From Solirubrobacter deserti (lineage in GTDB: Bacteria; Actinomycetota; Thermoleophilia; Solirubrobacterales; Solirubrobacteraceae): DNA of 64,000 nucleotides. The stretch is taken from positions 682,001 through 746,000 of the forward strand of contig NZ_QPKJ02000005.1 of NCBI RefSeq assembly GCF_003344625.1, read 5' to 3'. Below, piece by piece: positions 4,323-23,569 of this stretch. Within the stretch, counting starts at the first letter, position 1. Every line of letters begins with the position of its first letter. The notes under the pieces are model-generated. The model was given only the letters and a program-made list of their open reading frames with translations. It made no database searches and had not been told where the DNA came from. The translations under genes and the position numbers were made by a program.

Positions 4323-7208
<2,886 letters not shown>

Positions 7209-7322: not shown

Positions 7323-10300
7323 CTACGCCAGGAGCTTGCGCGCCTCTTCCAGCCGCAGCTGGTAGCGGTAGCGGTACTGCTCGGCCGGCCGCTCGGTGTC
7401 GGCGATCCACTCGCCCCACTTCGCCGGGTCCTTGCCGAAGTCGGCGTTGCCGCCCGCGATCGCCTTGCGCTTGACCGCGAGCGCCGTGTCGATGAACCAC
7501 TTGGCCTGGAGCTCGGGCTTGGTGGCGAACCCCTTGTAGGCGCCCTGGTCCCAGATGCCGACGCGCATCTGGAAGAAGCCGACCGAGTCCGCGTCGCCGT
7601 AGTTGAGGTTCTTGACCCCGGACTCGACGAGCGCCGCCATGACCGGCAGCTCGGGCGGGAGCCCGGCGGCCTCGGCCTGCTTGGCGAGCCACTTCGCGAG
7701 CTCCTCCTGCGACGCGTCGTCGCCCGGGTAGTCGCTGGCGGCGCTGCCGGGATCGATCGACGCCGCCGCGACGCCGGGCTGCGCGGCCGCCGGAGCCTCG
7801 ACCGGGGGCGTGGGCGCGATAGGTGCGCCCGGCGCGGGCGCGACGGCGGGCGGCGGGGCCGCGGCCGGCGGCGCGGGCGGGACGGCCGCGGGCTGCCCGG
7901 CGAGCTCGCGGCGGCGGGCCGCCTCGGACGGGTCGACGGCCTTCAGGAACATCGCCGACGCGTGACGCTCGGCGCGCTCCTTGCTCGCCTCGGCGCGCGC
8001 GATGGCCATGAACATCTGGGAGTCGTTGCGGCGCGCCTCGGCGGCGTCGCGCGCGACGGCGGCCTGCGCCTTGGCCACCGCGGTCGGGTCGATCGCGGGC
8101 GGCTGCGCGGCGAGCTGCGCGGGCTGGGCGGCGGGCGCGGCCACCGGCGCCGCTGCCACGGGTGCGGCGGCGTCGAAGCGGCGCCCGCCCGCGAACTGCC
8201 CCGCGTAGTACGGCTCGCTCAGGCTGGAGACCTTCACCACGTCGCCCGTGCTCGGCGCGTGCAGGAACTTGTCGCCGCCGAGGAACATGCCGACGTGGTG
8301 GACGTCGCCGTTGGCGGCGAAGAACACCAGGTCGCCGGGCTTGAGCTGGTTGCGGTCGGCAACCTCGGTGCCGGACTCGATCTGTGTGTAGGTGACGCGC
8401 GGGATCTGGATGCCGGACTGCGCGTAAGACCACTGCATCAGGCCCGAGCAGTCGAAGCCGGTCTGCGGCGTCGAGCCGCCCCATTTGTAGGGCGTGCCCA
8501 TGTGCTTGGACGCTTCCTGGATCGCGGCGAGCGCCTTCGGGCCCGGGCCGTTGCCGGCCGCGATCGCCTGTTGCAGCGGCCCGGCGATGTCCGCGGGCAG
8601 CCCGGCGAGCCCGGCCGCGGCGGCGGGATCGACCGGCGCGGCGGCCACGGGCGCCGCCACCGGCGCGGCGGCCGCCGCGGGCTGCGGCTGGGCGTTGAGC
8701 AGCTGGTTGGCCTCGGCCAGCCGCTCCTGGTAGCGGCCGCGGTACTGCTCGGCGGGGCGTTCGACGTCCGCGACCCACTCGCCGAACTGGCTCGGGTCGT
8801 CGACCGACTTGCCCGCGACGATCCGCTGCTTCTTGACCGCCTCGGCCTGGTCGAGGAACCACTTCATCTGCAGCTCGGGCTTCTCGGGGTAGCCGGCGTA
8901 CGCGCCCTGGTTCCAGATGCCGACGCGCATCTGGAAGAAGCCGACCGAGTCCGCGTGGCCGTGGTTGAGGTTCTTGAGGCCGGACTCGACCAGCCCGGCC
9001 ATCACCGGCAGCTGCGGCGGCAGCCCTCGCTCCTTCGCCTGCGCCGCCATCCACGCCGCGACCTGCTCCTTCGGCGCGTTGTCGCCGGGATAGGTGCTGG
9101 GGGCCGCGTCGACCGCCGCGGACACGTCGACGGCGGGCGCGGCCGCCGGCGCCGCGACGGCCGGCTGCACCACCGCGCCGCCGGGGAGCACGGGCGCCGC
9201 CGCAGCGACGGCCTTCGGCTTCTCGACCGCCGGCAGGAACGCCTGCGAATCGCTGCGGTCCGGCTCGCGGTCGGCGGACGCGGCCGCCGTGGCCTTGACC
9301 GCGGGCATGAACGCGTTCGACTGGCTCGGGTCGAAGGCCGGCGCGGCGGCCGCGGCGGCCACGGGCGCGCCTGGCGCCGCCGCCGCGAACTGCGCGGGCG
9401 CGGCGGCGGCCGGCGCGGCGGCGACGTCCGCGGGCGGCTTCCAGTCCGGCGTGATCTCCTGCTTGAAGCCGAGGTGGATGTGGTTCTGGTGCGCGGCGTC
9501 GGTGAAGTAGCCGGGGCCGGAGATCGCGAACGGCGAGCCGATCTCGTTCGGGCGGATGTCCGGGTCCAGCTGTGAGACCTCGGACGCGATCTCGCGCGCC
9601 AGCGGGCTGCCCGGCCCGACGATCTCGCCGTCGATCGCGGCGATGTCGAGCCCGCGGCCGTAGAAGTGGTTGGAGATCGAGCCGCCCGCGGTGAACTTCG
9701 AGTGGTCCGAGCACATGCACGAGACCGTGATCTTGTGCTCCTGGCTGAGCTTGGTCAGCACGCCGATCACGCGCGGATCGATGCGGCCGGCCTTGATGTC
9801 GGCCTTGCCCACGTCGTCGAGCACGACGTTCTTGTTCTCCAGCAGCGCGAGCGCCTCGGGGCTCGGCGGGCCGCCCGTGCCGACCTCCTCGCCGCCGAAC
9901 TGCTTGGGGTCGATCGGGGCGCTCGGCGCCGCCGCCTGCACGGGCGCCGCGGCCTGGACCGGCGGCGCGCCCGCCGCTTCCCCGTTGACGCGGATGAAGA
10001 CGACGTTGCCGCTGCTCGTGGAGCGGTCGATGTGGCTCACCGAGTCGGCGTTGTTGCCCTCCAGCGCCTTGAACTTGCCGTTCTGCACGGTGCTGTCGAG
10101 GTAGCCGATGTGGCCGTCGGCGCCGAAGTCGTTCTGCCCGCCCCAGTCGTAGGCGACGATGTCGCCCGGCCGCGCCTGGTCGGCGCTGACGATCTGCAGC
10201 CCGTGCTGGTTCTGCTCGGCCGCGCGGACCCACGTCTGCACGGCCGCCCAGCCGCCGCCCGGCATCTTCTTGCCGGCCTTCTCGAGCGTCCAGGTGATGA

Positions 10301-12908
10301 ACGACGCGCACCACGGGTTGCCGGACGGGACGCCCGCCGCGGACAGGTACTCGTCGACCTTCGGGCCGGCGTTGGTGCCCACCTCACGGACGCCCAGCTC
10401 GCCGCGCGCGACCGTCAGCGCCGCCGAGCCGAGCGAGCTGCCACCCGCCGTCGGCGCGACGGCGGCCGCGGCCTCCGCCATGCCCGCCACCGGCGCGGCC
10501 ACCGCTTGCGGCGCGGCGCGGTTGGCGAGCAGGCCCTTGGCCTCCTCGAGCTTGGTCTGGTAGCGGTAGCGGTACTGCTCGGCCGGGCGCTCGGTGTCGG
10601 CGATCCACTCGCCGAAGTGGTTCGGGTCGTCGATCGGCTTGCCCGCCGCGACGCGCGCGTTCTTGACCTTCTCCGCCTCGTCGAGGAACCACTCGATCTG
10701 CTTCTGCGGGTCCTTGCCGAAGCCCGCGTACTCGCCCTGGTCCCAGATGCTCACGCGCATCTGGAAGAAGCCGATGCTGTCCGCGTCGCCGTAGTTGAGG
10801 TTCTGCAGGTTGGACTCGACGAGCGCCGCCATCACCGGCAGCTCCGCCGGGAGGCCGCGCTTCTCGGCCTGGCCGGCCATCCAGGCCGCGAGCTGCTCCT
10901 TCGGCGCGTCGTCGCCGGGATAGACCTCGGGTGCGGCGGCCGCGGCCGCGACGACGTCGGACACCGGCAGCGCGGCCGGCTGCCCGGCGAGCTGCGCGGG
11001 CGCCTCCGGCTCGGCCTTCTTGATCGCGGGCAGGAAGGCCTGCGAGTCGCCGCGGTCAACCTCCCGTTCGCCGGAGGCGGCGGCCGCGGTGGCCTTCACC
11101 GCGGGCAGGAAGGCGTCGGACTTCGTCGGATCGAACGCCGGCGCGGGCGGGGGAGCGGCGGCCGCGGCGGCGACCGGCACACCCGGCGCGGCGGGCACCG
11201 CGGCGAACTGCGCGGGCGCGCCGGCGACGGCGGGCGCCGCGGCCGCGGGCGCGGTCGCCGCGACGTCGGCGGGCGGCTTCCAGTCCGCGGTGATCGGCTC
11301 CTTGAACCCCAGGTGGATGTGGTTCATGTGCGCCGCGTCGGTGAAGTACCCGGGCCCGGAGATCGCGAACGGCGAGCCGATCTCGTTGGGGCGGATGTTC
11401 GGGTCCAGCTGGGAGACCTCGGACGCGATCTCGCGCGCGAGCGGGCTGTCCGGGCTCACGATCTCGCCGTCGATCGCAGCGATGTCGAGCCCGCGGCCGT
11501 GATGGTGGTTGGAGATCGACCCGCCCGCGGTGAACTTCGAGTGGTCCGAGCACATGCACGAGACCGTGATCTTGTGCTCCTGGCTGAGCTTGGTGAGCAC
11601 GCCGACGACGCGCGGGTCGATCCGGCCGGCCTTGATGTCGGCGATGCCGTCCTTGTCCAGAACCACGTTCTTGTTCTTGAGCAGCGCGAGCGCCTCGGCG
11701 TTCGGTTCGCCACCCTTGCCCTCGGCCCCGAACTGCGCCGGATCGATCGCCGCCGGCGCCTTGGGCGCCTCCACCACCGCCGGCGCCGCGACCGGCTGGG
11801 CGGCGGGCGGCGCCTGCGCCGCGGTCGGCAGCGTGTTGTCGGGCGCCGCCGTCGGCAGCGCGTTCTCGGCGGGGGCGGTCGGCAGCGAGTTCTCGGCCGG
11901 TGCCGCGGGCAGCGAGTTGTCCACCGGCGTGGCCGGCAGCCCGTTCCCGCCCTTGGCTCCGCCCCCGCCTGAGAGCCGGCGCGCGAGCCGCCGCGCGAGC
12001 CCGCCCGACTGCTGCTGCTGGTTGCCGCTCGCGGGCAGCGCGCCCCTGACCGCGCCGTCAGCGGGGAGCGAGTTGTCGGCCCCCGACGGCACGTCGGTGA
12101 GCGGCGTCGTGTTCTCGCCCGCGGGCAGCTCGTCCGAGCCCGGCAGCGCGGACGTCGTCTCGTCGAGCGCGTTCGCGGCGCCCTCCTGCTCGGCCTTCTT
12201 GGCCGCCTCTGGGGAGTTCTCGTCCGCGATCCGCTTGGCGGCTTCGGCGGCCGGGTCCGGCCTGTCCTCCGGCTCCTGGGGCTTCTCGGGCTCCTTGGCC
12301 TTGTCCGTGTCGGTCTTGGCCGCCTCGCCCTCCGGCGGTGCCGCCTCGGGCGGGGGAGCAGCGGCCGGTGGCGGCGCCGCGGGCGGCGCAGCGGCGGCGG
12401 GCGGGGCGGCGCCGTCCGCGGGCGGCGCGACGCCCGGCACGCTCGGCGCCCCGGCTACGCCCGGCACGTCCGACGCCGGCACGTCCTGACCCGCGCCGGC
12501 GGCCGGCGGCGCGTCCGGCTCGGCCGGCGCCACCGGCTTGGGCGGAGCGTCGCCGTCACCGCCGATCCTCGGGATCGCGGGCAGGTCCACGCGCGAGACG
12601 ACGTCGGCCACCTTGCCCGGCAGCTCGCCGAGGTTCGGCACGACGTTCTCGGAGAAGTGCCAGATGCCGACGCCCTCCATGGCGGCCGCCATCATCACGC
12701 CCGCCAGCGAGGACTTGGACTCGCGGATGTCCAGCGTGTGGAACGCCTTGCCGCCGCCGAGCGACATCTCCTGCGCGAGCTGCTCGAGCCCGGCCTCGCG
12801 GCACGTCCCGACCGGGTCGCGGCGGAAGCGCGCGCGGAAGCCCGGGTCGGCCAGCAACCGCTCGATCAGCCGGGCGGCGACATCGGCTTCGGAAGGGGTG
12901 GCGGCCAC
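7323..12908 (-). CDS. Giant multi-module peptidoglycan hydrolase of the CIS locus (1861 aa)
   Basis: From a GTG start, with no signal peptide. Order: short helical N-domain (1-45, with LADPGFRARFRRDP), Ala/Pro-rich disordered region (to ~390), M15-type peptidase 1 (~400-540; HHHGRGLDIA and NHIHLGF metal motifs), lytic-transglycosylase-like module 1 (~660-797; ESNLQNLNYGDADSIGFFQM), CHAP amidase/endopeptidase (~819-974; Cys near 868 in NPWCASF, His in DGHIGYL), M15 peptidase 2 (~1003-1156), transglycosylase 2 (~1273-1403), NlpC/P60 peptidase (~1456-1581; GFDCSGLMQW, HHVGMF), transglycosylase 3 (~1728-1861). Linkers repeat a short SxAFLPAVK-like motif. It would cut glycan strands and stem peptides. 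It follows the M50 protease gene by 3 bases, at the end of the CIS operon. Without a signal peptide it probably leaves the cell through the CIS or acts on lysis (inference). Internal repeats make assembly errors possible. Confidence 0.9.
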   Translation of the reverse strand: MAATPSEADVAARLIERLLADPGFRARFRRDPVGTCREAGLEQLAQEMSLGGGKAFHTLDIRESKSSLAGVMMAAAMEGVGIWHFSENVVPNLGELPGKVADVVSRVDLPAIPRIGGDGDAPPKPVAPAEPDAPPAAGAGQDVPASDVPGVAGAPSVPGVAPPADGAAPPAAAAPPAAPPPAAAPPPEAAPPEGEAAKTDTDKAKEPEKPQEPEDRPDPAAEAAKRIADENSPEAAKKAEQEGAANALDETTSALPGSDELPAGENTTPLTDVPSGADNSLPADGAVRGALPASGNQQQQSGGLARRLARRLSGGGGAKGGNGLPATPVDNSLPAAPAENSLPTAPAENALPTAAPDNTLPTAAQAPPAAQPVAAPAVVEAPKAPAAIDPAQFGAEGKGGEPNAEALALLKNKNVVLDKDGIADIKAGRIDPRVVGVLTKLSQEHKITVSCMCSDHSKFTAGGSISNHHHGRGLDIAAIDGEIVSPDSPLAREIASEVSQLDPNIRPNEIGSPFAISGPGYFTDAAHMNHIHLGFKEPITADWKPPADVAATAPAAAAPAVAGAPAQFAAVPAAPGVPVAAAAAAPPPAPAFDPTKSDAFLPAVKATAAAASGEREVDRGDSQAFLPAIKKAEPEAPAQLAGQPAALPVSDVVAAAAAAPEVYPGDDAPKEQLAAWMAGQAEKRGLPAELPVMAALVESNLQNLNYGDADSIGFFQMRVSIWDQGEYAGFGKDPQKQIEWFLDEAEKVKNARVAAGKPIDDPNHFGEWIADTERPAEQYRYRYQTKLEEAKGLLANRAAPQAVAAPVAGMAEAAAAVAPTAGGSSLGSAALTVARGELGVREVGTNAGPKVDEYLSAAGVPSGNPWCASFITWTLEKAGKKMPGGGWAAVQTWVRAAEQNQHGLQIVSADQARPGDIVAYDWGGQNDFGADGHIGYLDSTVQNGKFKALEGNNADSVSHIDRSTSSGNVVFIRVNGEAAGAPPVQAAAPVQAAAPSAPIDPKQFGGEEVGTGGPPSPEALALLENKNVVLDDVGKADIKAGRIDPRVIGVLTKLSQEHKITVSCMCSDHSKFTAGGSISNHFYGRGLDIAAIDGEIVGPGSPLAREIASEVSQLDPDIRPNEIGSPFAISGPGYFTDAAHQNHIHLGFKQEITPDWKPPADVAAAPAAAAPAQFAAAAPGAPVAAAAAAPAFDPSQSNAFMPAVKATAAASADREPDRSDSQAFLPAVEKPKAVAAAAPVLPGGAVVQPAVAAPAAAPAVDVSAAVDAAPSTYPGDNAPKEQVAAWMAAQAKERGLPPQLPVMAGLVESGLKNLNHGHADSVGFFQMRVGIWNQGAYAGYPEKPELQMKWFLDQAEAVKKQRIVAGKSVDDPSQFGEWVADVERPAEQYRGRYQERLAEANQLLNAQPQPAAAAAPVAAPVAAAPVDPAAAAGLAGLPADIAGPLQQAIAAGNGPGPKALAAIQEASKHMGTPYKWGGSTPQTGFDCSGLMQWSYAQSGIQIPRVTYTQIESGTEVADRNQLKPGDLVFFAANGDVHHVGMFLGGDKFLHAPSTGDVVKVSSLSEPYYAGQFAGGRRFDAAAPVAAAPVAAPAAQPAQLAAQPPAIDPTAVAKAQAAVARDAAEARRNDSQMFMAIARAEASKERAERHASAMFLKAVDPSEAARRRELAGQPAAVPPAPPAAAPPPAVAPAPGAPIAPTPPVEAPAAAQPGVAAASIDPGSAASDYPGDDASQEELAKWLAKQAEAAGLPPELPVMAALVESGVKNLNYGDADSVGFFQMRVGIWDQGAYKGFATKPELQAKWFIDTALAVKRKAIAGGNADFGKDPAKWGEWIADTERPAEQYRYRYQLRLEEARKLLA

Positions 12909-12911: not shown

Positions 12912-14543
12912 CTACTTCTTCCCTCGGAAGCGTTCCCAGAGCGGCTTGCCCAGCACGAAGAACACCGGCGCGAAGAACGCGACCCACAGCGTTCCCATCA
13001 CGCCGTAGACGACCGACGCAGGCGCGTAGTCGAGGAAGATGTCCTTGTAGCGGAACGTGATCGCGATCGCGAACAGCGCCATCACGACCGACCAGCCGAG
13101 CCCGAACAGCGCGTAGCGCGCGAGCACCGGGGAGTCGTTCTCGCGCCGGCCCTCGCCGCGGATGCGCCGGTCGAACTGCTCCTTCGCGCGCCGGCGCAGC
13201 CCCGGCTCGTTCAAGCCGTCGACGAGGATGTGGTAGCCGTCGCGTTCGATGAACGGGTTGAGGTTGAAGAACGCGCCGACGTAGGCCGCGAACGCGAGGT
13301 TGAAGAAGATGTCGCGCACGGTCCCCTCGGGGAGCAGCAGCGCGCACAGCGCAAACACGGCGCCGAGGCTGAAGTCCGACGCCGGCCCGGCCGCGCTGAC
13401 CGCGATCCGCCGCCGCCGCGGCTCGAACCACGCCTCGCTCGTGTCCACGAACGCGTACGGGAAGATCGCGATCGCCTTCAGCCCCGCCTTGTCCACGCGC
13501 CGCCCGAAGGAGGCCATCGTCAGCCCGTGCGCGAGCTCGTGCACGCCGACGACGGCGAAGCGACCGAGCAGGAACACGAGCCCGCCCCAGCCGATCTTGG
13601 ACGCGACCACGAACGGCGTCCCATAGCGGCCCGCGATCAGGTAGATGAACGCGCCGAGCCCGAGCACGCCCAGCACCCCGAGCACGATCAGCGCCGGACG
13701 CGTGAAGAAGACCCAGCCGCCGCCGCGGTAGATCGCCTCGATCGTGGGGCCGAGGCCGGTGAAGATCTTCTCCCGCGGCTGGATCAGCTTGCGCCACCAC
13801 GAGGTCGGCGCCTCCGCGATCGGCTGTCCGCCGGCCACGCCCGACAGGAAGCCACGCTCGCCCAGGTCGGTCAGCAACCGGACGAGCCGGGTCGATCCTG
13901 TCGAGCCGAAGCGCTGCTCGCACAGCGCGATCAGCTCCAGCAGCGAATGGGTGCCGTCGAGGCGCTCGAACACCCACGCGTCGTTGTCCGAGAGCCGCAG
14001 GAAGGTGCCGTTGCGCGTGTCCTTGAGCACCCAGCGCTGGCGCCCCTCGGACGCGTCCAGCCGCTTGAGGGCGTACCCGGAGCGCACGCGCGGCCGCATC
14101 CCGAACTGGGTGCCGCCCGTCCCGACCGCGGGCGCGAACGCGGTCGCGCCCGCGGGCACGAACATCGTCCGCCCGGCCTCGGCGGCCTCGCGCCGGCGCT
14201 CCACGCGCAGCTCCGCGTCCCCGAGCCTGATCTTCGCCCCGTCGCGCAGCGGCGACGGACCCGTGACGCGCACCCCGTCCAGCCACGTCCCGTGCGAGGA
14301 GCCCGCGTCCTCGAGCACCGCGTCGGCCGTGATCCGCGCGTGCGTGCGCGACACCGACGGATCGTCGAGCAGGACCGTCGAGCCGGGCGCGCGACCGATC
14401 ACCAGCTCAGACACCACGGGGACCCGCTGCCCGCCGTCCAGCACGAGCTCCAGCGGGGCGGGCGCCCCGTTCAGGGGCGCCCCGCAGCTGCCGCAGTAGC
14501 TCGCTCCGCGCTCGAGCTGGCGACGGCAGCTGGGGCACAGCAC
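12912..14543 (-). CDS. Zinc-ribbon/FHA/PqqD-like membrane M50 metalloprotease
   Basis: 543 residues, GTG start. Residues 1-25: two CxxC pairs of a zinc ribbon. Residues ~46-112: FHA domain with Arg51, SRTH (65-68) and SSHG (82-85), the phosphothreonine-binding residues. Residues ~150-240: PqqD-like winged-helix segment (WVLKDTRNGTFLRLSDNDAW). Then several membrane segments with the zinc site HELAH (335-339) and the partner motif NPFIERDGYH (Asp435). This matches 'putative peptide zinc metalloprotease' proteins related to site-2 proteases. It sits between the PASTA protein (6-base gap) and the giant hydrolase (3-base gap). Likely role: phosphorylation-dependent membrane protease; processing of the hydrolase N-terminus is a hypothesis. 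Confidence 0.87.
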   Translation of the reverse strand: MLCPSCRRQLERGASYCGSCGAPLNGAPAPLELVLDGGQRVPVVSELVIGRAPGSTVLLDDPSVSRTHARITADAVLEDAGSSHGTWLDGVRVTGPSPLRDGAKIRLGDAELRVERRREAAEAGRTMFVPAGATAFAPAVGTGGTQFGMRPRVRSGYALKRLDASEGRQRWVLKDTRNGTFLRLSDNDAWVFERLDGTHSLLELIALCEQRFGSTGSTRLVRLLTDLGERGFLSGVAGGQPIAEAPTSWWRKLIQPREKIFTGLGPTIEAIYRGGGWVFFTRPALIVLGVLGVLGLGAFIYLIAGRYGTPFVVASKIGWGGLVFLLGRFAVVGVHELAHGLTMASFGRRVDKAGLKAIAIFPYAFVDTSEAWFEPRRRRIAVSAAGPASDFSLGAVFALCALLLPEGTVRDIFFNLAFAAYVGAFFNLNPFIERDGYHILVDGLNEPGLRRRAKEQFDRRIRGEGRRENDSPVLARYALFGLGWSVVMALFAIAITFRYKDIFLDYAPASVVYGVMGTLWVAFFAPVFFVLGKPLWERFRGKK

Positions 14544-14549: not shown

Positions 14550-17500
14550 TCAGCCCCCGAGCGTCAGCGGCTGGTACACCATGTCGTCGCCGCCCGGGCT
14601 GACGGTCTCGCCCTCGCGCAGGGCGCCGACCGGCACGCGGACGAGCGCACCGACGTCCTCGAGGCACGTCGCGTCCGCCTGGATGACGAGCAGCTCCTGC
14701 CCGTCGCTGCGCCACACGACCTTGCACGCGCGCACGGACGTCTTCTTCGCCTTCTCGATGTCGAACCCGTTCTTGGCGTCGCCGATGAACAGCGTGAAGC
14801 GCGAGGACCCGTGGTTGGAGATCATCGCGATCTGCTTGCCGTCGGGCGAGATCGCGGCATCGATCGTCATCTTGTTCGGCCGCTCGATGTCGGACACGAA
14901 GCGGCCCTTGGTCCAGTCGCCGGGGCTGGAGGAGAACGGGTCGCGGCCGTTCTTGAGGCGCCAGCGCACGATCCCCGCGGCGCTCTGGTCGTTCTTGCCC
15001 GCAAAGGCCAGGATCGTCTTGCCGTCCGGCGCCCAGCGCACGACGCGCGACGGCGAGAACGACGGCTCCGCGAGGCAGTTCGCGTCCATGCCGTTCGAGT
15101 TGATCTTGCCCAGGCACAGGTCCACGTCCGAGCCGCTGGAGCGGGTGAAGGCGAGCACGTTGGTGTCCGCGGTCGGCGCCCACGCGAGGTTGGAGTCGTT
15201 TCCGCCCTCCGGGCCGAGCGCCACCGGGTCCGAGTTCTCCTTCGAGATCTCCTTGAGCATGATCTGGCCGTCGGCGGAGTAGGCGACGTGGTCGCCGGCC
15301 GCGCTCCACGCGGGGTCGGTCTCCTCGGCGTCGTCGTCGGCCACCGGGTCCAGCCGGGTGCCGTTGGCGCCGTTGACGCGCAGGACGTTCTTGCCGTTGG
15401 TGAAGACCAGCTGCGGCTGCCCGGCGGAGACGAACAGCTGCGCCTTCTGGCCCTTCTTGACCTTCGTGCCCGGCTCGGGCTGGACGCCGATCAGGCGGCC
15501 GACCGGCGCGTCGTTGAAGCGCTTGACGGTGTTGGGCACGACGCCGAGGTCGGCGACCTTCTTGGCGTAGGTCTCGACGTCGTCCTTGCCGATCGGCGGC
15601 ATGGTGATCTCGGCACCGGCGCCCTTGGCGTCGTCGCCGCCACCGCCGCCGCCACCGCCGCCCTCGCCGTCGGCACCGTCACCCTCGCCGTCGCCACCGC
15701 CGTCATTCGCGCTCGGGTCCGGGAAGAAGATGTCGACCGGCTCGCCCTTTTGGACCACTTCCTTGGCCGCCGGGATCTGGCTCTCGATCTGCGCCTTCGG
15801 GTCCGCGTCGGCCGGGGAGGACTGCCCGAGGGTCAGGCCCTTCTCACGCAGGGTCCGGTTCGCATCCTCCGTGGTCATCCCGGTCAGGTCGGGCACCTCG
15901 AGCTTGCCCGAGCCGACCGCGATCAGCACCGTGACGGGCGTGCCCTTCTCGACCTCCTCGCCGGCCTTCGGCGTCTGGTCGATCACGGAGCCGGCCGGCT
16001 TGGAGTCGTCGACCTTCGTCTTCTGCGACGGGTCCAGCTTGAGCTCGGACTTGGTCAGCGTCTCCTCGGCCACGAACGCCGACTCGGCGCCCTTGACGTC
16101 CGGCACCGCGACGTTCTGCGGCAGCGAGCGGTAGAGCAGGAACAGCAGCAGGATCAGCAGCGCCAGGACGAGCAGCGACCACCACGGGATCCACGGCCGC
16201 TGGCGGAACACGCCCTGCGAGGGCGCGAGCGGGCCGGTGATCTTGTTGCCGCCGCGCGTGGGCATCTTCAGCCCGCCGCTCATCATCGAGCCCGCGTTCA
16301 TGCTCTTCATCTGCGGGCCCGCGAACTGCGGACCGCGCATCTGCGGCATGCGGATCTGGAGCCCGCCCGGGCCCATCTGGACGTCCGGCGGGTACAGCTG
16401 CGGCTTGTACACGCGCGGCGGGTACATGCCAGGCACGTTCGCCCGGGGGCGCCGCTTGTACCACTTCTTCTTGGGCGGCGTGGTGTCCACGCCGTCGAGC
16501 ACCTCGGCGCCCAGCGGCTGCGCGGCCGCGCGCTTGGCGGCCTCGTCGCCCGTGATCGTCTCGATCGAGAGCTGTCGGTCCTTGCCGCGGCCGATCCAGA
16601 TCTGCTTGGGCGGCTTGACCTGCATCTGGGTCGTGATCGACCCGCCCGCGGGGATCTCCTGCGGCGGCCGGTTGAAGCCGAACTGCAGCTCGCCGTCGGG
16701 GTCCTCGCCGTCGAGCGCGACGAGCACCGGGGCGTTGGCCTTGTTGAGGACCGTGACGTCGTAGGTGGCCTTGCGGCGCCCGCGGCGGCGCTGCGGGCGC
16801 AGCGCGGTGGCCGTGTCCTCATACGGGCCGATGTGCAGGTGCAGCGGGGCGGCGGCGGCGACGATCCGGCTCGCCTTGGAGTCCGCGACGACCTTGAGCT
16901 CCCACAGCCGCGCCTCGGCCTCAGGGCCGCGCGGCGGGTGCAGGTGGACCTCGACCTCCTGCTCGTAGGTCCCGCCCGCGCCGAACGGCACGAGGTAGAC
17001 GGTGCCGGGGTGGATCGACCACCAGCCCTCCGGCAGGCCCTCGACGCGCAGATCGTAGTTGTCGACGATGCCGCTCTGGTTGCGGATCAGCGCGAGCACG
17101 CGGCCGCGCTCGCCCGGCTCGACGGTGTGCTCGAGCACGCCACCCTTGGCGTAGTCGCCCTGCTCGCCCTCGCGCAGCACGATCGTCGCCGGCTCGGCGG
17201 GCAGCTCGTCACGCCGGTCGGCGACGCGCGGCGGCGGCGTGCCGCCTCCACGGGCCGGGACGGCGGGCACCGGGGCGTCCACGGGGACCGCCGGCAGGTT
17301 GCGCACCATCGTCTTGGCCACCGGGCGCGCGCCGGGCGGCGCGACGGCGGGAACCGGCGCGGGCGGCGTCGGCGGCGGAGGGGCGACCTCGGGCGTGTGG
17401 TGGCCGTTGCCAAGGCCGTTGCCGGTCTCGGGCGCGACCGGCGCGGCCGGCGTCACGACGGGCGGCGGAGGCGGCGGCGGAGCGGGAGCGGGGGCCGGGC

Positions 17501-17636
17501 TGGGCTGGGGCTCGACCTGGTCGGAGGTGATCGCCGGCATCGCGTAGCCGGTCGGCTCCCAGCGCAGGTACTCACCGCAGCTGCAGAAGTCCTGGTCCGC
17601 AGGGTTCTCCTTGCCGCAGCTCTGACACGTCCTCAT
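14550..17636 (-). CDS. Zinc-ribbon / PASTA / beta-propeller membrane protein, candidate CIS membrane anchor
   Basis: 1028 residues. N-terminal zinc ribbon (CQSCGKEN..CSCG), Pro-rich linker, two Ig-like beta domains (~165-400; EPGERGRVLALIRNQSG), a Met/Pro/Gln-rich strand, one membrane helix (~480-507), then outside the cell three PASTA-type repeats (VPDVKGAESAF, VPDLTGMTTEDANRTL, and a more diverged MPPIGKDDVETYAKKVADLG) and a C-terminal TolB/PD40-like propeller (SPDGKQIAMIS and similar repeats). PASTA repeats bind peptidoglycan stem peptides in PknB-type kinases. Its ATGA overlap with the gpI-like baseplate gene ties it to the CIS operon, so it could dock the baseplate to the membrane and wall. 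That role is inference. Confidence 0.85.
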   Translation of the reverse strand: MRTCQSCGKENPADQDFCSCGEYLRWEPTGYAMPAITSDQVEPQPSPAPAPAPPPPPPPVVTPAAPVAPETGNGLGNGHHTPEVAPPPPTPPAPVPAVAPPGARPVAKTMVRNLPAVPVDAPVPAVPARGGGTPPPRVADRRDELPAEPATIVLREGEQGDYAKGGVLEHTVEPGERGRVLALIRNQSGIVDNYDLRVEGLPEGWWSIHPGTVYLVPFGAGGTYEQEVEVHLHPPRGPEAEARLWELKVVADSKASRIVAAAAPLHLHIGPYEDTATALRPQRRRGRRKATYDVTVLNKANAPVLVALDGEDPDGELQFGFNRPPQEIPAGGSITTQMQVKPPKQIWIGRGKDRQLSIETITGDEAAKRAAAQPLGAEVLDGVDTTPPKKKWYKRRPRANVPGMYPPRVYKPQLYPPDVQMGPGGLQIRMPQMRGPQFAGPQMKSMNAGSMMSGGLKMPTRGGNKITGPLAPSQGVFRQRPWIPWWSLLVLALLILLLFLLYRSLPQNVAVPDVKGAESAFVAEETLTKSELKLDPSQKTKVDDSKPAGSVIDQTPKAGEEVEKGTPVTVLIAVGSGKLEVPDLTGMTTEDANRTLREKGLTLGQSSPADADPKAQIESQIPAAKEVVQKGEPVDIFFPDPSANDGGGDGEGDGADGEGGGGGGGGGDDAKGAGAEITMPPIGKDDVETYAKKVADLGVVPNTVKRFNDAPVGRLIGVQPEPGTKVKKGQKAQLFVSAGQPQLVFTNGKNVLRVNGANGTRLDPVADDDAEETDPAWSAAGDHVAYSADGQIMLKEISKENSDPVALGPEGGNDSNLAWAPTADTNVLAFTRSSGSDVDLCLGKINSNGMDANCLAEPSFSPSRVVRWAPDGKTILAFAGKNDQSAAGIVRWRLKNGRDPFSSSPGDWTKGRFVSDIERPNKMTIDAAISPDGKQIAMISNHGSSRFTLFIGDAKNGFDIEKAKKTSVRACKVVWRSDGQELLVIQADATCLEDVGALVRVPVGALREGETVSPGGDDMVYQPLTLGG

Positions 17637-18334
17637 GACTCGACCTTCTTCTTTGCTGCCTTGACGCGCAGCCGGTACGTAGCGTGCACCGGCTTGTACT
17701 GCTCGATGATGCGGGCGACGGCCGCCTGCATGTCAGCGTCCACGGGCTTGTCGCAGTAGACGACGAAATCCGAGGACGCGGTATTCCCATCGGTGGCCGG
17801 CTTGCCGTGCCAGGTGACGCCGCCGTTGTCCTCCACGCGCAGCGGCACGCCCGGGAAGTGCAGCTGCAGCGCGAGCTCCATGCCCTTCACCGTGCCGCGC
17901 CGGCGGCCCAGCTCCGCGGAGCGCCGGACCATCTCGCGCTGGTGCTTGATGTCCTGCGTCTCGTCGAGGTCGACACCCAGCCACGCGGCCAGGAGGCTCA
18001 GGATGTCCGGCGGCGCGAGGTTCGGGTCAAAGTGCGAGGGGAGCGCGTCCAGCACCGCGACGATCGGGTCCAGCAGCTCCTCGAGCGAGCCGATGAACCG
18101 CATGCCGAAGTCGCCGTCCTGGTAGAGCGAAGGCAGCCCGTTGCGCAGGTACGCGCGCGAAGACGCGACCGGCGGGGTCTCCTTCGGCCCCAGCGACAGC
18201 TGCATCATCAAGGTGCCGAAGCCGGCGCCGGAGAACGTGCGATAGCCGTTCCCGTTGCCGTCGGTGGACAGCTCGAGATCGGTCCCGTGACCGTTCGAGC
18301 TCTCCTCCGGCCCCTTGTACTGCCCTGTGCTCAC
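17633..18334 (-). CDS. CIS baseplate protein, phage tail protein I (gpI/Afp12-like)
   Basis: 233 residues, GTG start. After a variable ~50-residue N-terminus comes the conserved tail-protein-I core: SRAYLRNGLPSLYQDGDFGMRF, then LDPIVAVLDALPSHFDPNLAPPDILSLLA with a WLG motif, then RRGTVKGMELALQLHFPG. In phages and Afp/PVC particles this protein joins the gpJ-like wedge at the baseplate edge. It shares one base with the upstream gpJ-like gene (TAGTG) and four bases (ATGA) with the downstream PASTA gene, implying translational coupling. In fibre-bearing particles the next gene is usually the tail fibre; here it is the PASTA protein. Confidence 0.88.
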   Translation of the reverse strand: MSTGQYKGPEESSNGHGTDLELSTDGNGNGYRTFSGAGFGTLMMQLSLGPKETPPVASSRAYLRNGLPSLYQDGDFGMRFIGSLEELLDPIVAVLDALPSHFDPNLAPPDILSLLAAWLGVDLDETQDIKHQREMVRRSAELGRRRGTVKGMELALQLHFPGVPLRVEDNGGVTWHGKPATDGNTASSDFVVYCDKPVDADMQAAVARIIEQYKPVHATYRLRVKAAKKKVES

Positions 18335-20331
18335 TAATCCTCGCGGTGCGTGGCCTTGACGATGTGCAGGCCGGAGGCGATCAACTCGTCCGGCTCCAGC
18401 ACGATGTGCGTGCCGGCCGGCTTGGCCGACTGCTCGCCCGTCTCCAGGTTGGTCTCGTAGAGACGCAGGATGCGCACGAACTCCACGCCTTCGACGGCAT
18501 GTACGACACCGTAAAGCTCACCCTGGTTCAGCGCCCGCCCAAATGGCCAGCCCGCGCCGGGGCCCGTCGGATTTCCCCCTACCAGCGGGTTCAGGTACGT
18601 GTACAGCGCGTGCGCGACGTCCTGCTCGACGCGCGCGGTGTCCGCAAGCGGACGTGCCTGCAGGTTCACGACGACGCTCAGCCCCCGGAACCGGCACGGC
18701 TTGAGCTCCACCTTCGTGCCGATCAGCCGCCGCTCGTCGAGGTACTCGCCGACCTCGCTCAGCAGCTCGGGCTCCGGGACGAGCTCCTCGAAGTGCAGGC
18801 GCCGGTCGGCCGGGTAGATGCGCGGGATCAGGTGCAGCGGGACGGGGCCGCCGTCGCGCGGCGGGATGCAGACGGCGCGCGCGACGCGCGGGCTCGCCTC
18901 ACCGGCCAGGAACTCGAAGTCCTCGGCCGTCACGGCGCGATAGCGCGAGCGGATCTCCATCGACGCGCGCTGGCGCGCGTGCGTGAGGATCTCGGCGTCC
19001 ACGCCACCGGAGGCCGCGTCCGGGTTGGTGACCGTGTCCACGCCCGCGATCGTGCTCTTGAGCACGCTCAGCGAGTTCGCGGTGACGTTGCCGTCGCGCC
19101 CGCCGCCGTGGCGGTACTTGGTGAAGCGCAGGATCGCGCCCTTGGGCGGCACGGCGCCGTACTGGATCCAGCGCCCGCTGGTCTCGCGGATCGCGGGCCC
19201 GAACTCCACCTCGCCGGACACCAGGTCGACCGTGAAGTGGCGGTCGTGCTCGGTCGAGCCGACGAAGTCGGTCCGGAACTCCCAGCGCACCCAGTCGCCC
19301 GTGTCCGGGTCCTGGACCTCGAGCGTCTCGCTCGCGTCGAGCTTGAGGATCGGGTGGTGGCGCAGCGGGAAGATCTGCCCGGGCGTGCCGTCGGAGGACC
19401 CGAGGATCTCGCGCTCGACCAGGGACGCGTGCGTGGCGGGCAGGCGCGCGCCCATCGGGACCGCCGTGATCGAGTAGATCTCCGGCGCGTGCGAGTAGGT
19501 CGCGCCCTCGCGGCCGCTGGCCGTCGTCTCGGTGATCCGGCAGCGCAGCCAGTACAGCCGCTGGCCGGCGATCGGGGCGATCGCCGAACGCGGCGGCAGC
19601 TCCAGCTCCACCACACCCGAGCCGTAGTTGAAGCCGCCCGTGAGGTCCTCGAGCACGGTCGCCGGGAGCCACTCGTCGTCGCCCTGGGAGACCTCCCAGC
19701 GCAGCGGCGGGTCCTCCGGGTTCACGCCCGCGCCGCGCGCCTGCGAGGCGTCGACGTCGATCTGGATGATCAGGCGGTCCAGCGGGTCCTCGAAGCCGAG
19801 GTACAGGCAGTCGCCGACCTGCGGCGGCGTGCCGAACGCAAGCTGGTCCGAGCCCTGCGGGCGCGCCTCGCCGTCGGCCACGCCGACGTTCTTGGGCGTC
19901 TGCCCGACGCGCTGCAGCACGTAGGCCGCGGGCGTCATGGACGGGATCGTGAAGTCCTCGTCGACCTGGAAGATCACCGACTCGTCCTGGGCGGTGCGCG
20001 GCGTGCCGACCTCGGTGTCGCCGCCCGCGATCAGGATCGGCTCGCTCGGCGCGTCCGCCAGCCGGAAGCGCAGGCTCGTGGTGGCGGCGGAGGGGCCGTC
20101 GAGGCGGATCCCGAGCAGGTCCAGCAGCGCGACATGGAGCTTGTCCGGCACGCGGTTGAGCCGGTAGATCGTCATCTCCGTCATCCACGCGAACAGCTCG
20201 ATCAGCGTGATGCCGGGGTCCGAGACGTTGTGCTCGGTCCACTCGGGGCACGAGCGCGCGATGCGCGTGCGGGCCTCGGAGACGAGATCCTGGAAGCGGC
20301 GGTCGTCGAGCTGGATCTCGGGGAGCCTCAC
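18334..20331 (-). CDS. CIS baseplate wedge protein (gpJ/Afp11-like)
   Basis: 665 residues, GTG start overlapping the gp25 stop (GTGA). N-terminal signature EIQLDDRRFQDLVSEARTRI and NVSDPGITLIELFAWMTEM are characteristic of 'putative baseplate assembly protein' of CIS and phage tails. Middle beta domains follow, and the C-terminal half shows the gpJ-like YRAVTAEDFEFLAGEASPRVARA and LVGGNPTGPGAGWPFGR segments. It forms the wedge around the spike and triggers sheath contraction. Length is typical for Afp11-type proteins with an inserted domain. Confidence 0.92.
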   Translation of the reverse strand: MRLPEIQLDDRRFQDLVSEARTRIARSCPEWTEHNVSDPGITLIELFAWMTEMTIYRLNRVPDKLHVALLDLLGIRLDGPSAATTSLRFRLADAPSEPILIAGGDTEVGTPRTAQDESVIFQVDEDFTIPSMTPAAYVLQRVGQTPKNVGVADGEARPQGSDQLAFGTPPQVGDCLYLGFEDPLDRLIIQIDVDASQARGAGVNPEDPPLRWEVSQGDDEWLPATVLEDLTGGFNYGSGVVELELPPRSAIAPIAGQRLYWLRCRITETTASGREGATYSHAPEIYSITAVPMGARLPATHASLVEREILGSSDGTPGQIFPLRHHPILKLDASETLEVQDPDTGDWVRWEFRTDFVGSTEHDRHFTVDLVSGEVEFGPAIRETSGRWIQYGAVPPKGAILRFTKYRHGGGRDGNVTANSLSVLKSTIAGVDTVTNPDAASGGVDAEILTHARQRASMEIRSRYRAVTAEDFEFLAGEASPRVARAVCIPPRDGGPVPLHLIPRIYPADRRLHFEELVPEPELLSEVGEYLDERRLIGTKVELKPCRFRGLSVVVNLQARPLADTARVEQDVAHALYTYLNPLVGGNPTGPGAGWPFGRALNQGELYGVVHAVEGVEFVRILRLYETNLETGEQSAKPAGTHIVLEPDELIASGLHIVKATHRED

Positions 20332-20729
20332 TCCATCTCCTCCGCGGGGATCACGTAGAAGGGGTACACGAGGTTGCGCGACGTGTTGGTGGCGCGCACC
20401 TTGTAGACGATGTCGATGGTGAGCAGGCCGCTCGCGGCGTCCGAGCCGTCGAAGTCGACGCGCTCCACCTCGATCCGCGGCTCCCAGCGGGCCAGTGCGT
20501 CGCGGACCGCCTGCTCCATGCTGCCGATGGTGTTCGCGTCGATCGAGTCGAACACGAAGTCGTGCACCCCGCAGCCGAACTCGGGGCGCATGGGGCGCTC
20601 GCCGGGCGCTGTGCCGAGGATGAGCTGGATCGCCTGCTCGATGTCCTGCTCGTCCTTGGCCAGCGCGATCCCGCCGCGGCGGTCCACCTGCAGCGGGAAG
20701 GCGAGGCCGGATCCGATGATCTCCGTCAC
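20328..20729 (-). CDS. CIS baseplate protein gp25 (GPW/gp25, Afp9-like)
   Basis: 133 residues, GTG start. The whole protein is one gp25 domain, including QLILGTAPGERPMRPEFGCG followed by VRDALARWEPRIEVERVD; the EPR motif is the gp25 hallmark. It nucleates sheath assembly on the baseplate. It lies between the spike and gpJ-like genes, as in Afp, PVC and actinobacterial CIS loci. Confidence 0.93.
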   Translation of the reverse strand: MTEIIGSGLAFPLQVDRRGGIALAKDEQDIEQAIQLILGTAPGERPMRPEFGCGVHDFVFDSIDANTIGSMEQAVRDALARWEPRIEVERVDFDGSDAASGLLTIDIVYKVRATNTSRNLVYPFYVIPAEEME

Positions 20730-20739
20730 GCGTTCGACC

Positions 20740-22443
20740 CTAACCGATGTTGATCGGCATGCCCTTGATACTTACGGGGCCCGATCCCTGGATGTTGACC
20801 GTCGCGCCCTTGAGTGTGAGCGCGGCGGTCGCTTCGACGTTCACCGAGACGCCCTTGACCGTCATGCTCGAGCCCGCTTCGACCACGAACGTCTGGGCCT
20901 TCTGCTTGTTGTTGCCGGTCGTGTCGTGGGTCGAGTTGCCCTTGACCGTCGTCTTCTCGTCCTGCCTGATCTCGACGACCATGTTCTGGTCGGACTTGAT
21001 CTCGAAGTCCTTCTTGGAGTGCTGGTGAATCTTCTCGTTGCTGAGCACCGCGAAGGATCCGTCCCGGTTCTGGAGCAGGTCTGGGCCCGGCTTGTCCCGG
21101 CCGTTGAAGGTCGAGCCGAGCACCACCGGGCGCCGGCTGTCGCCGTGCTCGAAGCCGACGATGACCTCCTCGTTGACCTGCGGGAGCATCAGCAGGCCGC
21201 GGGCGTTGCCCGTGCTCGGGGTCGCGACGCGCGCCCACGCCGACTCCTCGCTGTCGGACAGGCTCGGGTACTTGACGCGGACGCGACCCATCTGCTCCGG
21301 GTCGTTGTTGTTGGTCACCACGCCGACCACCAGCGAGTTGGTCCACTCGCGGTTGGCGGGCGGGCGGATCAACTCGGTGAGCGTCCGGGCGCTGCGTCCG
21401 GAGATCTGGAAGCTCGTGTTGTATCCGCGGTGGCCGTGGTAGGTGTGCGTGCTCGAGGAGACGGTGAACTCGCCGCCGAACTTGGTGCCGACGCCCTCGA
21501 TCTTGACCTTGCCCCCGGCCTTGATCTCCGGGCTGCCGAGCGCGACGCCGTCCGCCTCGTAGAAGGCGTCCGCCATCCGCTGCAGCGTGGCCTTGGCGAT
21601 CTCGTTCGCCTCGCCGTTGTTGGCCGCGATGCGGTCGGCGACCATCGTCTTTCCGCCGCCGAGGTCGTTGGCGACCGAGCTGCGCTGGACGCCCGCCTGC
21701 GACGTCGTCTGCGCGTTGCTCGCGTTGCCGTTGACGACCTGCTTGTTCTTCGGGTCCCAGGCGCGCACCTGCACGGTGTCGACCTGCTGGACGCCGCTCA
21801 TGCGCGGGCGGAACGTCGTCAGGTTCTCGCCCCAGCGCAGGCTCTTGACCGCGCCGGTGGCCACGTTGGCCTTGCGGAAGTCGAGCTTGCCGTCGACCAC
21901 GACGACCTCGAAGTCGTGCATCAGCGCGAGCCGCCACAGGAAGTCCCAGTCGGTCTCGTTGCTCTGCTGGAAGAACTCGTGGACGACGCTGGTCGCCTCG
22001 ATCTTGCCCGCCGCCAGCCCGGACTCGCCGACGACCTTCTTGACCATGTCGGAGGCCGACACCTGCTGGAAGGTGCGCGTCTTCTTCTGGCGGTTGAGCT
22101 TGTGCGCCTCGTCGTACGCTCGCGCGGAGATCACGACGCCCTGGGGCGTGAACTCGGGCTCGACGGCCGCGATCTGGCCCTTGAAGATCGTCGTGGTCGA
22201 CTTGGCGTCGAGCTCGCCCGCCTTGATCTCGAGCTTGGCGCCGATCTTCAGTGGGTTCGTGTCGATGTTCTCGCCCTTGGGGTCCGTGATCCGGACGAGC
22301 GCCGTGTCCGGCAGGATGAGGCTGTCGACGACCTTGACCTCGTGCAGGAAGTCGCGGAACTTGGGGTCGAGCGGCTGGCCGTCGACCGCCACCGTCATCG
22401 AGGCGACGTGCTGCTCGGACTTGGTTCCGGTCTGCGGCGGCAT
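20740..22443 (-). CDS. CIS spike protein (VgrG/gp27-gp5-like, Afp8-like)
   Basis: 567 residues from ATG 22441-22443, which overlaps the stop of the LysM gene (TGATG); an open frame extends 100 codons further upstream but reads through that gene and has no family similarity. Residues ~1-370 form a gp27-like ring (NETDWDFLWRLALMHDFEV). Next is an OB fold (RVRVKYPSLSDSEESAWARV and VGFEHGDSRRPVVLGSTFNG), then a C-terminal beta-helix spike with repeated VNVEATAALTLKGATVNI-like strands. No PAAR domain or toxin extension is visible at the end (KGMPINIG). Confidence 0.92.
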   Translation of the reverse strand: MPPQTGTKSEQHVASMTVAVDGQPLDPKFRDFLHEVKVVDSLILPDTALVRITDPKGENIDTNPLKIGAKLEIKAGELDAKSTTTIFKGQIAAVEPEFTPQGVVISARAYDEAHKLNRQKKTRTFQQVSASDMVKKVVGESGLAAGKIEATSVVHEFFQQSNETDWDFLWRLALMHDFEVVVVDGKLDFRKANVATGAVKSLRWGENLTTFRPRMSGVQQVDTVQVRAWDPKNKQVVNGNASNAQTTSQAGVQRSSVANDLGGGKTMVADRIAANNGEANEIAKATLQRMADAFYEADGVALGSPEIKAGGKVKIEGVGTKFGGEFTVSSSTHTYHGHRGYNTSFQISGRSARTLTELIRPPANREWTNSLVVGVVTNNNDPEQMGRVRVKYPSLSDSEESAWARVATPSTGNARGLLMLPQVNEEVIVGFEHGDSRRPVVLGSTFNGRDKPGPDLLQNRDGSFAVLSNEKIHQHSKKDFEIKSDQNMVVEIRQDEKTTVKGNSTHDTTGNNKQKAQTFVVEAGSSMTVKGVSVNVEATAALTLKGATVNIQGSGPVSIKGMPINIG

Positions 22444-23102
22444 CAGTTCTCGATGCTCGGGATCGACAGCGAGCGGCCGCGGCGCAGGTGCAGCGGGTTG
22501 TCGACGCCGTTGGCCTCGGCGATCAGGCGCCACTGCGTGGCGTCCCCGTACGTGTCGTAGGAGATCGACGGGAGCGTGTCGCCGTCCTTGATGCGGTGCA
22601 CGCCGAAGCCGGCCTGCGCGCGGGTCGTGGGATTCTGGCCCTTGGGCGGCTCGCCCGTCTGCGTGAGGCTGAGCTTGACGTCGGCGCGCAGCGGCTGGCC
22701 CTCGGGTGTGAACAGCTTGTACGTGCAGGTCAGGCTCGTGCACGCGCCCTTGAACTTGAGCTTGCCCCAGCCGAAGGTGATGAACGGCGGCGCGGCGGTC
22801 GGCGCGCCCGCGTTCTGGCCGGACGGGACCTCCATCGCGTCGAGCAGCATCGCGGTCGCCTCGCCCACCGACATCGTGAACGGCGGGAACGTCTGGTCGA
22901 ACAGCAGGCTCAGCTCGAGCTTGCGCGGGTTGCCGCTCGTGAACTTCTGGTTGGGGGAGGACTTGCCGTTGACCTTCTCCGCTTCCCAGGTGTTCGTCTT
23001 CGCGATCGAGTACTCGGTCGGGTTGAAGTAGCAGTCGAGCTTCTTGCCGCCCTCGATCTCGAGGTAGGCGCGGACGAAGTTCTCGGGCAGTGCGCTGGCC
23101 AT
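22443..23102 (-). CDS. CIS tube-baseplate adaptor with LysM domain (Afp7-like)
   Basis: 219 residues. The N-terminal two thirds carry the adaptor core (LDCYFNPTEYSIAKTNTWE, RKLELSLLFDQTF, FKGACTSLTCTYKLFTPEGQPLRA). The last ~50 residues are a LysM-like fold (HRIKDGDTLPSISYDTYGDA through RRGRSLSIPSIEN). In Afp/PVC particles this protein links tube-initiator rings to the spike; the LysM fold is structural there rather than wall-binding. It lies between the second tube gene (4-base gap) and the spike gene (overlapping). Confidence 0.9.
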   Translation of the reverse strand: MASALPENFVRAYLEIEGGKKLDCYFNPTEYSIAKTNTWEAEKVNGKSSPNQKFTSGNPRKLELSLLFDQTFPPFTMSVGEATAMLLDAMEVPSGQNAGAPTAAPPFITFGWGKLKFKGACTSLTCTYKLFTPEGQPLRADVKLSLTQTGEPPKGQNPTTRAQAGFGVHRIKDGDTLPSISYDTYGDATQWRLIAEANGVDNPLHLRRGRSLSIPSIEN

Positions 23103-23106
23103 CTCG

Positions 23107-23559: not shown

Positions 23560-23569
23560 GGGCGGCTCG

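What the first reader, a model, noticed from the sequence alone, without database searches (positions are those of the whole stretch)
7323..12908. Seven catalytic wall-hydrolase modules in one protein with no signal peptide
Three transglycosylase-like, two M15, one CHAP and one NlpC/P60 modules lie in a single 1861-residue chain at the end of the CIS operon. Together they could cut both glycan and peptide bonds. The N-terminus is not a signal peptide. I recall no described CIS or phage protein with this many distinct wall-degrading domains. It may be a CIS cargo, a tail-associated lysin, or a lysis protein freed after firing.
Basis: partly seen in the sequence, partly recalled or inferred. Interest (0 to 1): 0.85.

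Follow-up and report, generated by a model that had tools for sequence, protein, structure and literature searches.

The report
Leader-tagged wall-cutting protein beside injection machine
A soil bacterium's contractile injection gene cluster ends in a very long protein with seven cell-wall-cutting parts, and in place of an ordinary export signal it starts with a folded tag of the kind used for small antibiotic peptides, next to a membrane protease that may recognise that tag.

Summary
One 1861-residue chain in a Solirubrobacter CIS operon carries two MepA/M15-like, three lysozyme-fold, one CHAP and one NlpC/P60 module, all with catalytic motifs, and no Sec/Tat signal. The gene 3 nt upstream encodes a zinc ribbon-FHA-PqqD/RRE-like-M50 membrane protease; NHLP leaders are known to bind RRE domains. 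Leader protein and M50 protein are adjacent in 15 of 15 loci of the class, and both are missing from the two more distant CIS loci long enough to test. Leader and an M50 protein also pair without a detected CIS in one distant genome. Enzyme modules differ between genomes while the leader stays. A single-pass PASTA/propeller protein sits where Streptomyces encodes CisA, and a Ser/Thr kinase gene lies beside the cassette. Best reading: a two-gene 'gated lysin' cassette in which the membrane protease recognises and releases the hydrolase, which reaches the wall when a membrane-docked CIS fires. Whether the target is the producer's own wall or a neighbour's is unresolved. New variant of a known kind.

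The parts
7323..12908 (-). 1861-aa leader-tagged multi-domain peptidoglycan hydrolase (whole gene)
12579..12908 (-). residues 1-110: NHLP-like leader domain (about 6-45), then RESKSSLAGVMMAAAMEG motif (62-79)
   Evidence: NF038399 and TIGR04509 matched in 10 of 10 excised ortholog N-termini; profile finds nitrile hydratase alpha chains in PDB; motif in 17 of 17 rows
11265..11747 (-). M15/MepA-like module a (residues 388-548), SNHHHGRGLD and HMNHIH
   Evidence: 87% identical to copy b
10524..10925 (-). lysozyme-fold (SLT-like) module 1, LVES at 696
9981..10430 (-). CHAP module (residues 827-976), WCASF and GHIG
   Evidence: Pfam PF05257; PHROG endolysins
9426..9914 (-). M15/MepA-like module b (residues 999-1161)
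8694..9095 (-). lysozyme-fold (SLT-like) module 2 (residues 1272-1405)
8169..8591 (-). NlpC/P60 module (residues 1440-1580), DCSG, HHVG
   Evidence: Pfam PF00877 E 9e-33; PHROG phage tail proteins
7326..7733 (-). lysozyme-fold (SLT-like) module 3 (C-terminal)
   Evidence: relative P0168 ends in a canonical SLT domain instead
12912..14543 (-). zinc ribbon-FHA-PqqD/RRE-like-M50 membrane metalloprotease (HELAH 335, NLNPFIERDG 427), partner gene
14550..17636 (-). single-pass protein: N-terminal zinc-ribbon-like part, TM at 483, three PASTA stretches and a PD40 repeat; occupies the place that CisA has in Streptomyces
4332..7208 (+). Ser/Thr protein kinase with one TM-like stretch (HRDLKPEN, DFG), convergent with the hydrolase; start codon uncertain (ORF 4218-7208)
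   Evidence: kinase gene in 9 of 9 loci that run on past the hydrolase
17633..31381 (-). CIS structural genes: Tail_P2_I, Baseplate_J, gp25, spike (about 20740-22446), CIS_tube+LysM, tube, low-complexity 1252-aa protein, small protein, tube, sheath, response-regulator-like small protein, Pvc16 cap
   Evidence: spike by position and reading of the sequence, not by a family match
36305..39612 (-). AAA+ ATPase (36305-38278) and eCIS_core/DUF4157 protein (within 38299-39612; true start uncertain)

Best explanation
The hydrolase and the upstream FHA-RRE-M50 gene form a two-gene 'gated lysin' cassette added to one subtype of membrane-docked actinobacterial CIS. Proposed steps: (1) the hydrolase is made in the cytoplasm without a Sec/Tat signal (shown by sequence). 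(2) Its NHLP-like leader is bound by the PqqD/RRE-like domain of the M50 membrane protein, which holds it at the inner membrane face (inferred from homology, the published NHLP-RRE interaction and the gene pairing). (3) The adjacent Ser/Thr kinase, acting through the FHA domain, signals envelope state, with the PASTA protein as wall sensor and CIS anchor (inferred; analogy to T6SS PpkA-Fha and to CisA). (4) On firing, the CIS breaches the membrane while the M50 protease frees the hydrolase from its leader. Its small domains on Ala/Pro-rich linkers then reach the wall and cut both glycan and peptide bonds (inferred). The likeliest outcome is lysis or opening of the producer's own wall, as a holin-endolysin pair would do; delivery into a neighbour is the main alternative.
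For: Leader is NHLP-like: two NHLP families matched in 10 of 10 excised N-termini; excised segments from G206 and G299 pass the cut-off of TIGR04509 and 4 of 4 from G766 pass NF038399. Of 11 PDB rows at E<=1, 8 are nitrile hydratase alpha chains (best 6lk7 E 0.0026, the other seven 0.3-0.42). Partner: Pfam PqqD at E<=0.1 in 26 of 39 homologs and 8 of 11 excised segments, best 1.2e-6; PDB PqqD 3g2b E 0.0033 over segment 2-84 of 90 and TfuB1 E 0.0071. M50 motifs intact. Leader gene directly follows the M50 gene in 15 of 15 loci of the class, two of them assemblies of one species; spacing -14 to +3 nt in 9 of 9 measured, by first in-frame start codon. CIS locus G113 keeps the PASTA protein but has neither gene; G391 has neither. 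Leader proteins near an M50 protein in a genome without a sheath match: G766. Leader kept while enzymes change (M23, weak Glucosaminidase and SLT-like in G206). NHLP-RRE binding and M50 processing of RiPPs are published (passages of PMC12455567, and PMC10885120). CisA: single-pass, encoded just after the baseplate, needed for firing (passages of PMC12237407).
Against: No binding, cleavage or localisation is shown. The window's own PqqD match is weak (E 0.011, 16.5 of 23.4 bits), and the M50 proteins of G766, G299 and G206 showed no PqqD match at E<=0.05. In one search designed beta-trefoils matching 22 residues score above PqqD. The fold search of the M50 model was filled by FHA domains, so the RRE fold is untested. 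The window's leader is just under the curated cut-offs. The L(X)4L motif by which NHLPs bind RREs and the Gly-Gly motif are not conserved in the region after the helices, so the contact must differ in part. The kinase gene is not in the same operon. Nothing separates self-lysis from delivery to another cell.
Confidence: 0.5

Rival explanations
1. Luminal CIS cargo: the leader is a loading signal and the long chain of small domains is threaded into the inner tube and injected into another cell, whose wall it cuts.
For: Last gene of the CIS operon. Small domains on flexible linkers could fit a tube (inference). Known CIS effectors include a predicted peptidoglycan hydrolase tested as a toxin (EAT10; passages of PMC8213781) and tape-measure-like Sle1, packaged in the Streptomyces particle (abstract and one section of PMC13277306). 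The SLT-like module has a weak tape-measure PHROG match, E 0.0026, and NlpC matches phage tail proteins. A short F[LMQ]xA[VI] motif recurs in linkers, 117 against 4.5 expected in 61 related proteins.
Against: It does not explain the M50 partner, which lies near leader proteins in a genome with no sheath match. No DUF4157 match in the protein. The linker motif is absent in several diverged relatives.
Confidence: 0.28
2. Leader-guided export independent of firing: the M50-RRE protein (or an unknown partner) exports the hydrolase, which remodels the wall so that CIS particles can assemble at or leave the envelope.
For: EpeP, an M50 protease, is thought both to cleave and to export a peptide (passage of PMC10885120). 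Leader proteins near an M50 protein occur without a detected CIS in G766.
Against: Export of a short peptide is a poor precedent for a chain of 1861 residues. Classical NHLP export uses a peptidase-ABC transporter (passages of PMC2887384); in this genome none of the 81 listed TIGR03796 matches passes its cut-off and none covers profile positions 1-138. In the class sample 12 of 15 leader genomes also have a CIS sheath.
Confidence: 0.15
3. Ordinary cytoplasm-released autolysin whose NHLP-like segment is a relic without function, kept in the operon by chance.
For: The matches of this window's leader are just under curated cut-offs.
Against: Leader under purifying selection (rough dN/dS 0.21, 0.24, 0.32), R[ETS][SL][KR]S[STA][LVI] motif in 17 of 17 rows (pattern drawn from these rows), steady pairing with M50.
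Confidence: 0.07

Closest known systems
NHLP / RiPP precursor leaders with RRE-containing enzymes and M50 proteases
   Same: Nitrile-hydratase-like leader, PqqD/RRE-like domain and M50 protease encoded side by side
   Different: The 'core' is a chain of folded enzymes of ~1750 residues, no modifying enzyme among the operon genes scanned, no C39-type transporter over cut-off, Gly-Gly and L(X)4L not conserved, linked to a CIS
Streptomyces cytoplasmic CIS with CisA (type IId)
   Same: Actinobacterial CIS with a single-pass membrane protein encoded just after the baseplate genes
   Different: Membrane protein has PASTA and PD40 parts instead of the CisA C-terminal domain; extra M50 + hydrolase cassette; kinase and FHA parts. 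Sequence homology to CisA was not tested
CIS effectors: EAT10 (peptidoglycan hydrolase), Sle1 tape-measure-like effectors
   Same: Encoded with CIS genes; wall hydrolysis (EAT10) or modular effector (Sle1)
   Different: Leader-tagged, many catalytic modules, not DUF4157-fused, not next to the DUF4157 gene
Phage endolysins and tail lysins
   Same: CHAP, SLT-like and NlpC modules match endolysin and tail PHROGs
   Different: Seven modules in one chain, NHLP-like leader, no head genes among the 20 ORFs of the neighbourhood scanned
T6SS threonine phosphorylation pathway (PpkA-Fha)
   Same: Ser/Thr kinase plus FHA protein beside a contractile machine
   Different: Here FHA is fused to RRE-like and M50 domains in a CIS; analogy only

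Membership tests
NHLP RiPP leader | nitrile hydratase alpha-like N-terminal domain | tested here: met
   the window itself slightly under curated cut-offs, excised segments of G206, G299 and G766 over them
NHLP RiPP leader | Gly-Gly cleavage motif ending the leader | tested here: not met
   GG near 50 in the window, L023, L025, L028, L030, L037, L059 and some G766 copies, but absent or elsewhere in L024, L032, L033, L035, L062, L065
NHLP RiPP precursor | short hypervariable core peptide with modifying enzymes and peptidase-ABC transporter | tested here: not met
   ~1750 residues of enzyme modules and linkers follow; no modifying enzyme among the 20 ORFs scanned; no TIGR03796 match over cut-off in the genome
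RRE (PqqD-like) domain in the partner | PqqD-like sequence and fold | tested here: inconclusive
   Pfam PqqD in 26 of 39 and 8 of 11, none in three distant members; PDB PqqD E 0.0033 behind designed trefoils; AF2 shows three strands then helices there; fold search did not test it
M50 metalloprotease | HExxH and NPxxxxDG motifs, membrane helices | tested here: met
   HELAH 335, NLNPFIERDG 427; TM-like stretches; PF02163 33.8 bits over cut-off 27.2. Motif meaning recalled
CIS gene cluster | sheath, tubes, gp25, Baseplate_J, spike, Pvc16 cap, AAA+, eCIS_core | tested here: met
   spike by position and sequence only
CIS effector/cargo | packaged in the particle | not testable with these tools
   needs purified particles
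CIS effector/cargo | DUF4157 domain in the protein | tested here: not met
   no PF13699 match listed for the hydrolase; the eCIS_core gene lies about 25 kb upstream
NlpC/P60 and CHAP peptidases | curated family score and catalytic Cys/His | tested here: met
M15/MepA (LAS) metallopeptidases | SxHxxGxxxD and HxxHxH motifs and fold | tested here: met
SLT / lysozyme superfamily | curated SLT family score | tested here: not met
   no SLT Pfam match in any of 18 modules at E<=0.1
SLT / lysozyme superfamily | lysozyme-like fold with catalytic Glu | tested here: met
   model of copy 2 matches 8b2h, MltC, MltF, LytB; Glu invariant in 18 of 18; register-consistent but weak HHalign to SLT (probability 9.6, P 0.0034)

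The most novel reading that the evidence does not exclude
A RiPP-type address system (NHLP-like leader plus RRE-M50 gatekeeper) has been taken over to hold, license and release a giant multi-enzyme lysin for a contractile injection machine, so that CIS firing and wall breakage are coupled through a leader-protease switch under kinase/FHA control. This would be a new class of CIS effector control, with an NHLP-type leader serving a large chain of folded enzymes.
Probability: 0.4. Interest if true: 0.85.

Novelty: new variant of a known kind. Interest (0 to 1): 0.68.

Why it matters
How intracellular CIS in Gram-positive-type bacteria get their effectors through membrane and wall is open. A cassette that pairs a wall hydrolase with a membrane protease likely to recognise its leader makes that step testable by simple gene removals, and it would extend RiPP-style leaders from small peptides to a large enzyme. 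It also gives a search key (leader motif plus M50 neighbour) for CIS effectors that carry no DUF4157 domain.

Tried and rejected
Phage origin of the leader: 86 stretches of IMG/VR matched a pattern, 0 encoded a relative. PDB sequence search with the SLT-like profile gave 0 rows at E<=1, and with the M15-like profile 3 unrelated rows, so fold prediction was needed. HHalign of the SLT-like modules to canonical SLT domains of the same genome was weak. The leader as a transmembrane or Sec signal was rejected by hydropathy only; no signal-peptide predictor was on hand. A tape-measure (length ruler) role was judged unlikely because length varies from 636 to 1992 aa among relatives. RRE fold search: no PqqD structure was among the 50 rows shown, because FHA rows filled the list. 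Foldseek 'pdb' itself was never accepted. Literature: no paper held both 'contractile injection system' and 'NHLP'; 'Solirubrobacter' with 'contractile injection' gave one soil-amendment paper (listing and abstract start only); searches with hydrolase/cargo, FHA/kinase, NlpC/CHAP and PASTA terms showed no title describing this cassette among the rows listed (lists were cut at 8-20 rows). Passages of PMC12998442, PMC12067865 and PMC7470986 gave nothing on this cassette. The library holds only open-licence PMC papers. The >=67% sheath-identity class used in the full report was chosen after seeing the data. G058 (leader fragment with a stop, no CIS gene found on its contig) was set aside in the pairing and kinase counts.

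Full report
What is there. The window lies in a 7.55-Mb assembly of 428 contigs; the gene next to the finding is 100% identical in Solirubrobacter deserti CPCC 204708 (class Thermoleophilia). The minus strand from 31381 down to 7323 is a contractile injection system (CIS) operon: Pvc16 cap, a small response-regulator-like protein, sheath, tube, small protein, a low-complexity 1252-aa protein, second tube, CIS_tube+LysM, spike, gp25, Baseplate_J, Tail_P2_I, a PASTA/PD40 protein, an FHA-M50 protein and finally the 1861-aa hydrolase. An AAA+ ATPase and an eCIS_core (DUF4157) protein lie at 36305-39612. A Ser/Thr kinase gene (about 4332-7208, +) converges on the hydrolase.

Copy number and decay. 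The first M15 copy lacks the catalytic motif in L028, L037 and L025 but not in the window, where it is 87% identical to the second copy, as gene conversion could give. Rough dN/dS is 0.15-0.73 for the modules compared, other than M15a (1.00, 0.72, 0.51 against L028, L037, L025); the leader gives 0.21, 0.24, 0.32; L037 is cut off and does not cover the last three modules. In 51 longer relatives with the leader, my own module profiles found 2-8 matches per protein and 2-4 kinds; at least one value of 8 (P0131, S. soli) is inflated by a split M15 match. More distant relatives swap modules: G206 carries M23, a sub-threshold Glucosaminidase match, a motif-less M15-like part and a C-terminal SLT-like module; P0168 ends in a canonical SLT domain (94 bits).

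The N-terminus. All 10 excised ortholog N-termini match NCBIfam NHLP models NF038399 and TIGR04509, best E 2.2e-10; the window's segment is just under the curated cut-offs (37.4 of 40 and 31.5 of 34 bits; as a whole protein 32.9 and 26.7). Excised segments of G206 and G299 pass TIGR04509, and 4 of 4 from G766 pass NF038399; G345 passes neither. A profile of 17 leaders finds 11 PDB rows at E<=1, of which 8 are nitrile hydratase alpha chains (best E 0.0026, the others 0.3-0.42). Sources name one of 51 relatives 'NHLP-related RiPP peptide' (NCBI) and five 'putative modified peptide' (JGI). After the helices comes a motif R[ETS][SL][KR]S[STA][LVI], present in 17 of 17 rows (pattern drawn from these rows), while Gly-Gly and L(X)4L are not conserved there.

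Pairing. The M50 gene was found in 11 of 201 genomes of the order. With S. soli, G299, G206 and G345 added there are 15 loci of the class, two of them assemblies of one species: the window, L022, L023, L024, L025, L028, L030, L032, L033, L035, L037, G188, G299, G206 and G345. The leader protein directly follows the M50 gene in 15 of 15; spacing is -14 to +3 nt in the 9 measured. In a class sample the leader is in 15 of 399 genomes, the sheath in 29 of 399, both in 12 (Fisher p 7e-13, not corrected for relatedness). Of 13 genomes with sheath identity of at least 67%, 12 have the leader; the exception, G305, breaks off inside the PASTA gene just before the cassette. None of the other 16 sheath genomes has a leader match. 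Of those 16 I fetched four: G113 has the PASTA protein but no M50 or leader in 19.9 kb, G391 has none of the three in 6.4 kb after Tail_P2_I; the G384 and G075 pieces were too short. Three genomes have a leader match without a sheath match: G058 (fragment with a stop), G263 and G411 (weak). Elsewhere in the phylum, G766 carries four leader proteins, three of them within about 4.2 kb of an M50 protein, and has no sheath match (80% complete genome). A Chloroflexales M50 relative (L027) showed no leader in 9.9 kb. So in this sample the two genes come and go together as a cassette.

Context for mechanism. The PASTA/PD40 protein has one predicted TM (483) and lies just after Tail_P2_I, the place of CisA in Streptomyces, a single-pass protein needed for firing (PMC12237407, passages). 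The kinase gene is near in 9 of 9 loci that run on past the hydrolase; a PAAR-like gene is found in 6 of those 9, one of which supplied the query. Kinase plus FHA recalls the T6SS PpkA-Fha pathway (listing and abstract starts). Classical NHLP export looks absent: none of the 81 listed TIGR03796 matches in the genome passes the cut-off or covers profile positions 1-138.

Conclusion. Shown by sequence: a multi-module hydrolase with intact motifs, an NHLP-like leader, steady pairing with an FHA-M50 gene, CIS linkage. Supported but not settled: the RRE-like domain of the partner and the lysozyme fold of the SLT-like modules. Inferred: leader-RRE docking, proteolytic release, CIS-dependent access to the wall, kinase control, and the target. 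I favour self-wall opening (holin-endolysin logic) over injection into a neighbour, without direct evidence.

Noticed in passing
window 23570-27328 (-): 1252-aa protein in the tape-measure position is mostly low-complexity with many PASIARTPADD-like and QPTLARTAQ-like repeats; no Pfam match.
   Followed up: no
window 7323-12908, linkers (F at residues 600, 625, 1200, 1224, 1654): Short linear motif F[LMQ]xA[VI] recurs in linkers: 117 matches against 4.5 expected in 61 related proteins (not independent, a few duplicates; none in L030, L033, L035, L062, P0160). Possibly a docking site.
   Followed up: partly
L063 8484-12594 and L064 4030-5079: G766 has four NHLP-leader proteins with long low-complexity tails, three of them near an M50 protein, and no sheath match in the genome.
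   Followed up: partly
L024 20807-21280, L030 7640-8278, L033 5727-6362, L035 4088-4606, L059 8082-8456, L062 10116-10586: PAAR-like repeat gene close to the kinase gene; no match in the window.
   Followed up: partly
L059 15118-18356: In G299 the leader and the C-terminal module of the hydrolase lie in different reading frames.
   Followed up: no
window 29933-30355 (-): Small protein with a weak response-regulator-receiver match between cap and sheath genes, found also in L060 and L061.
   Followed up: no
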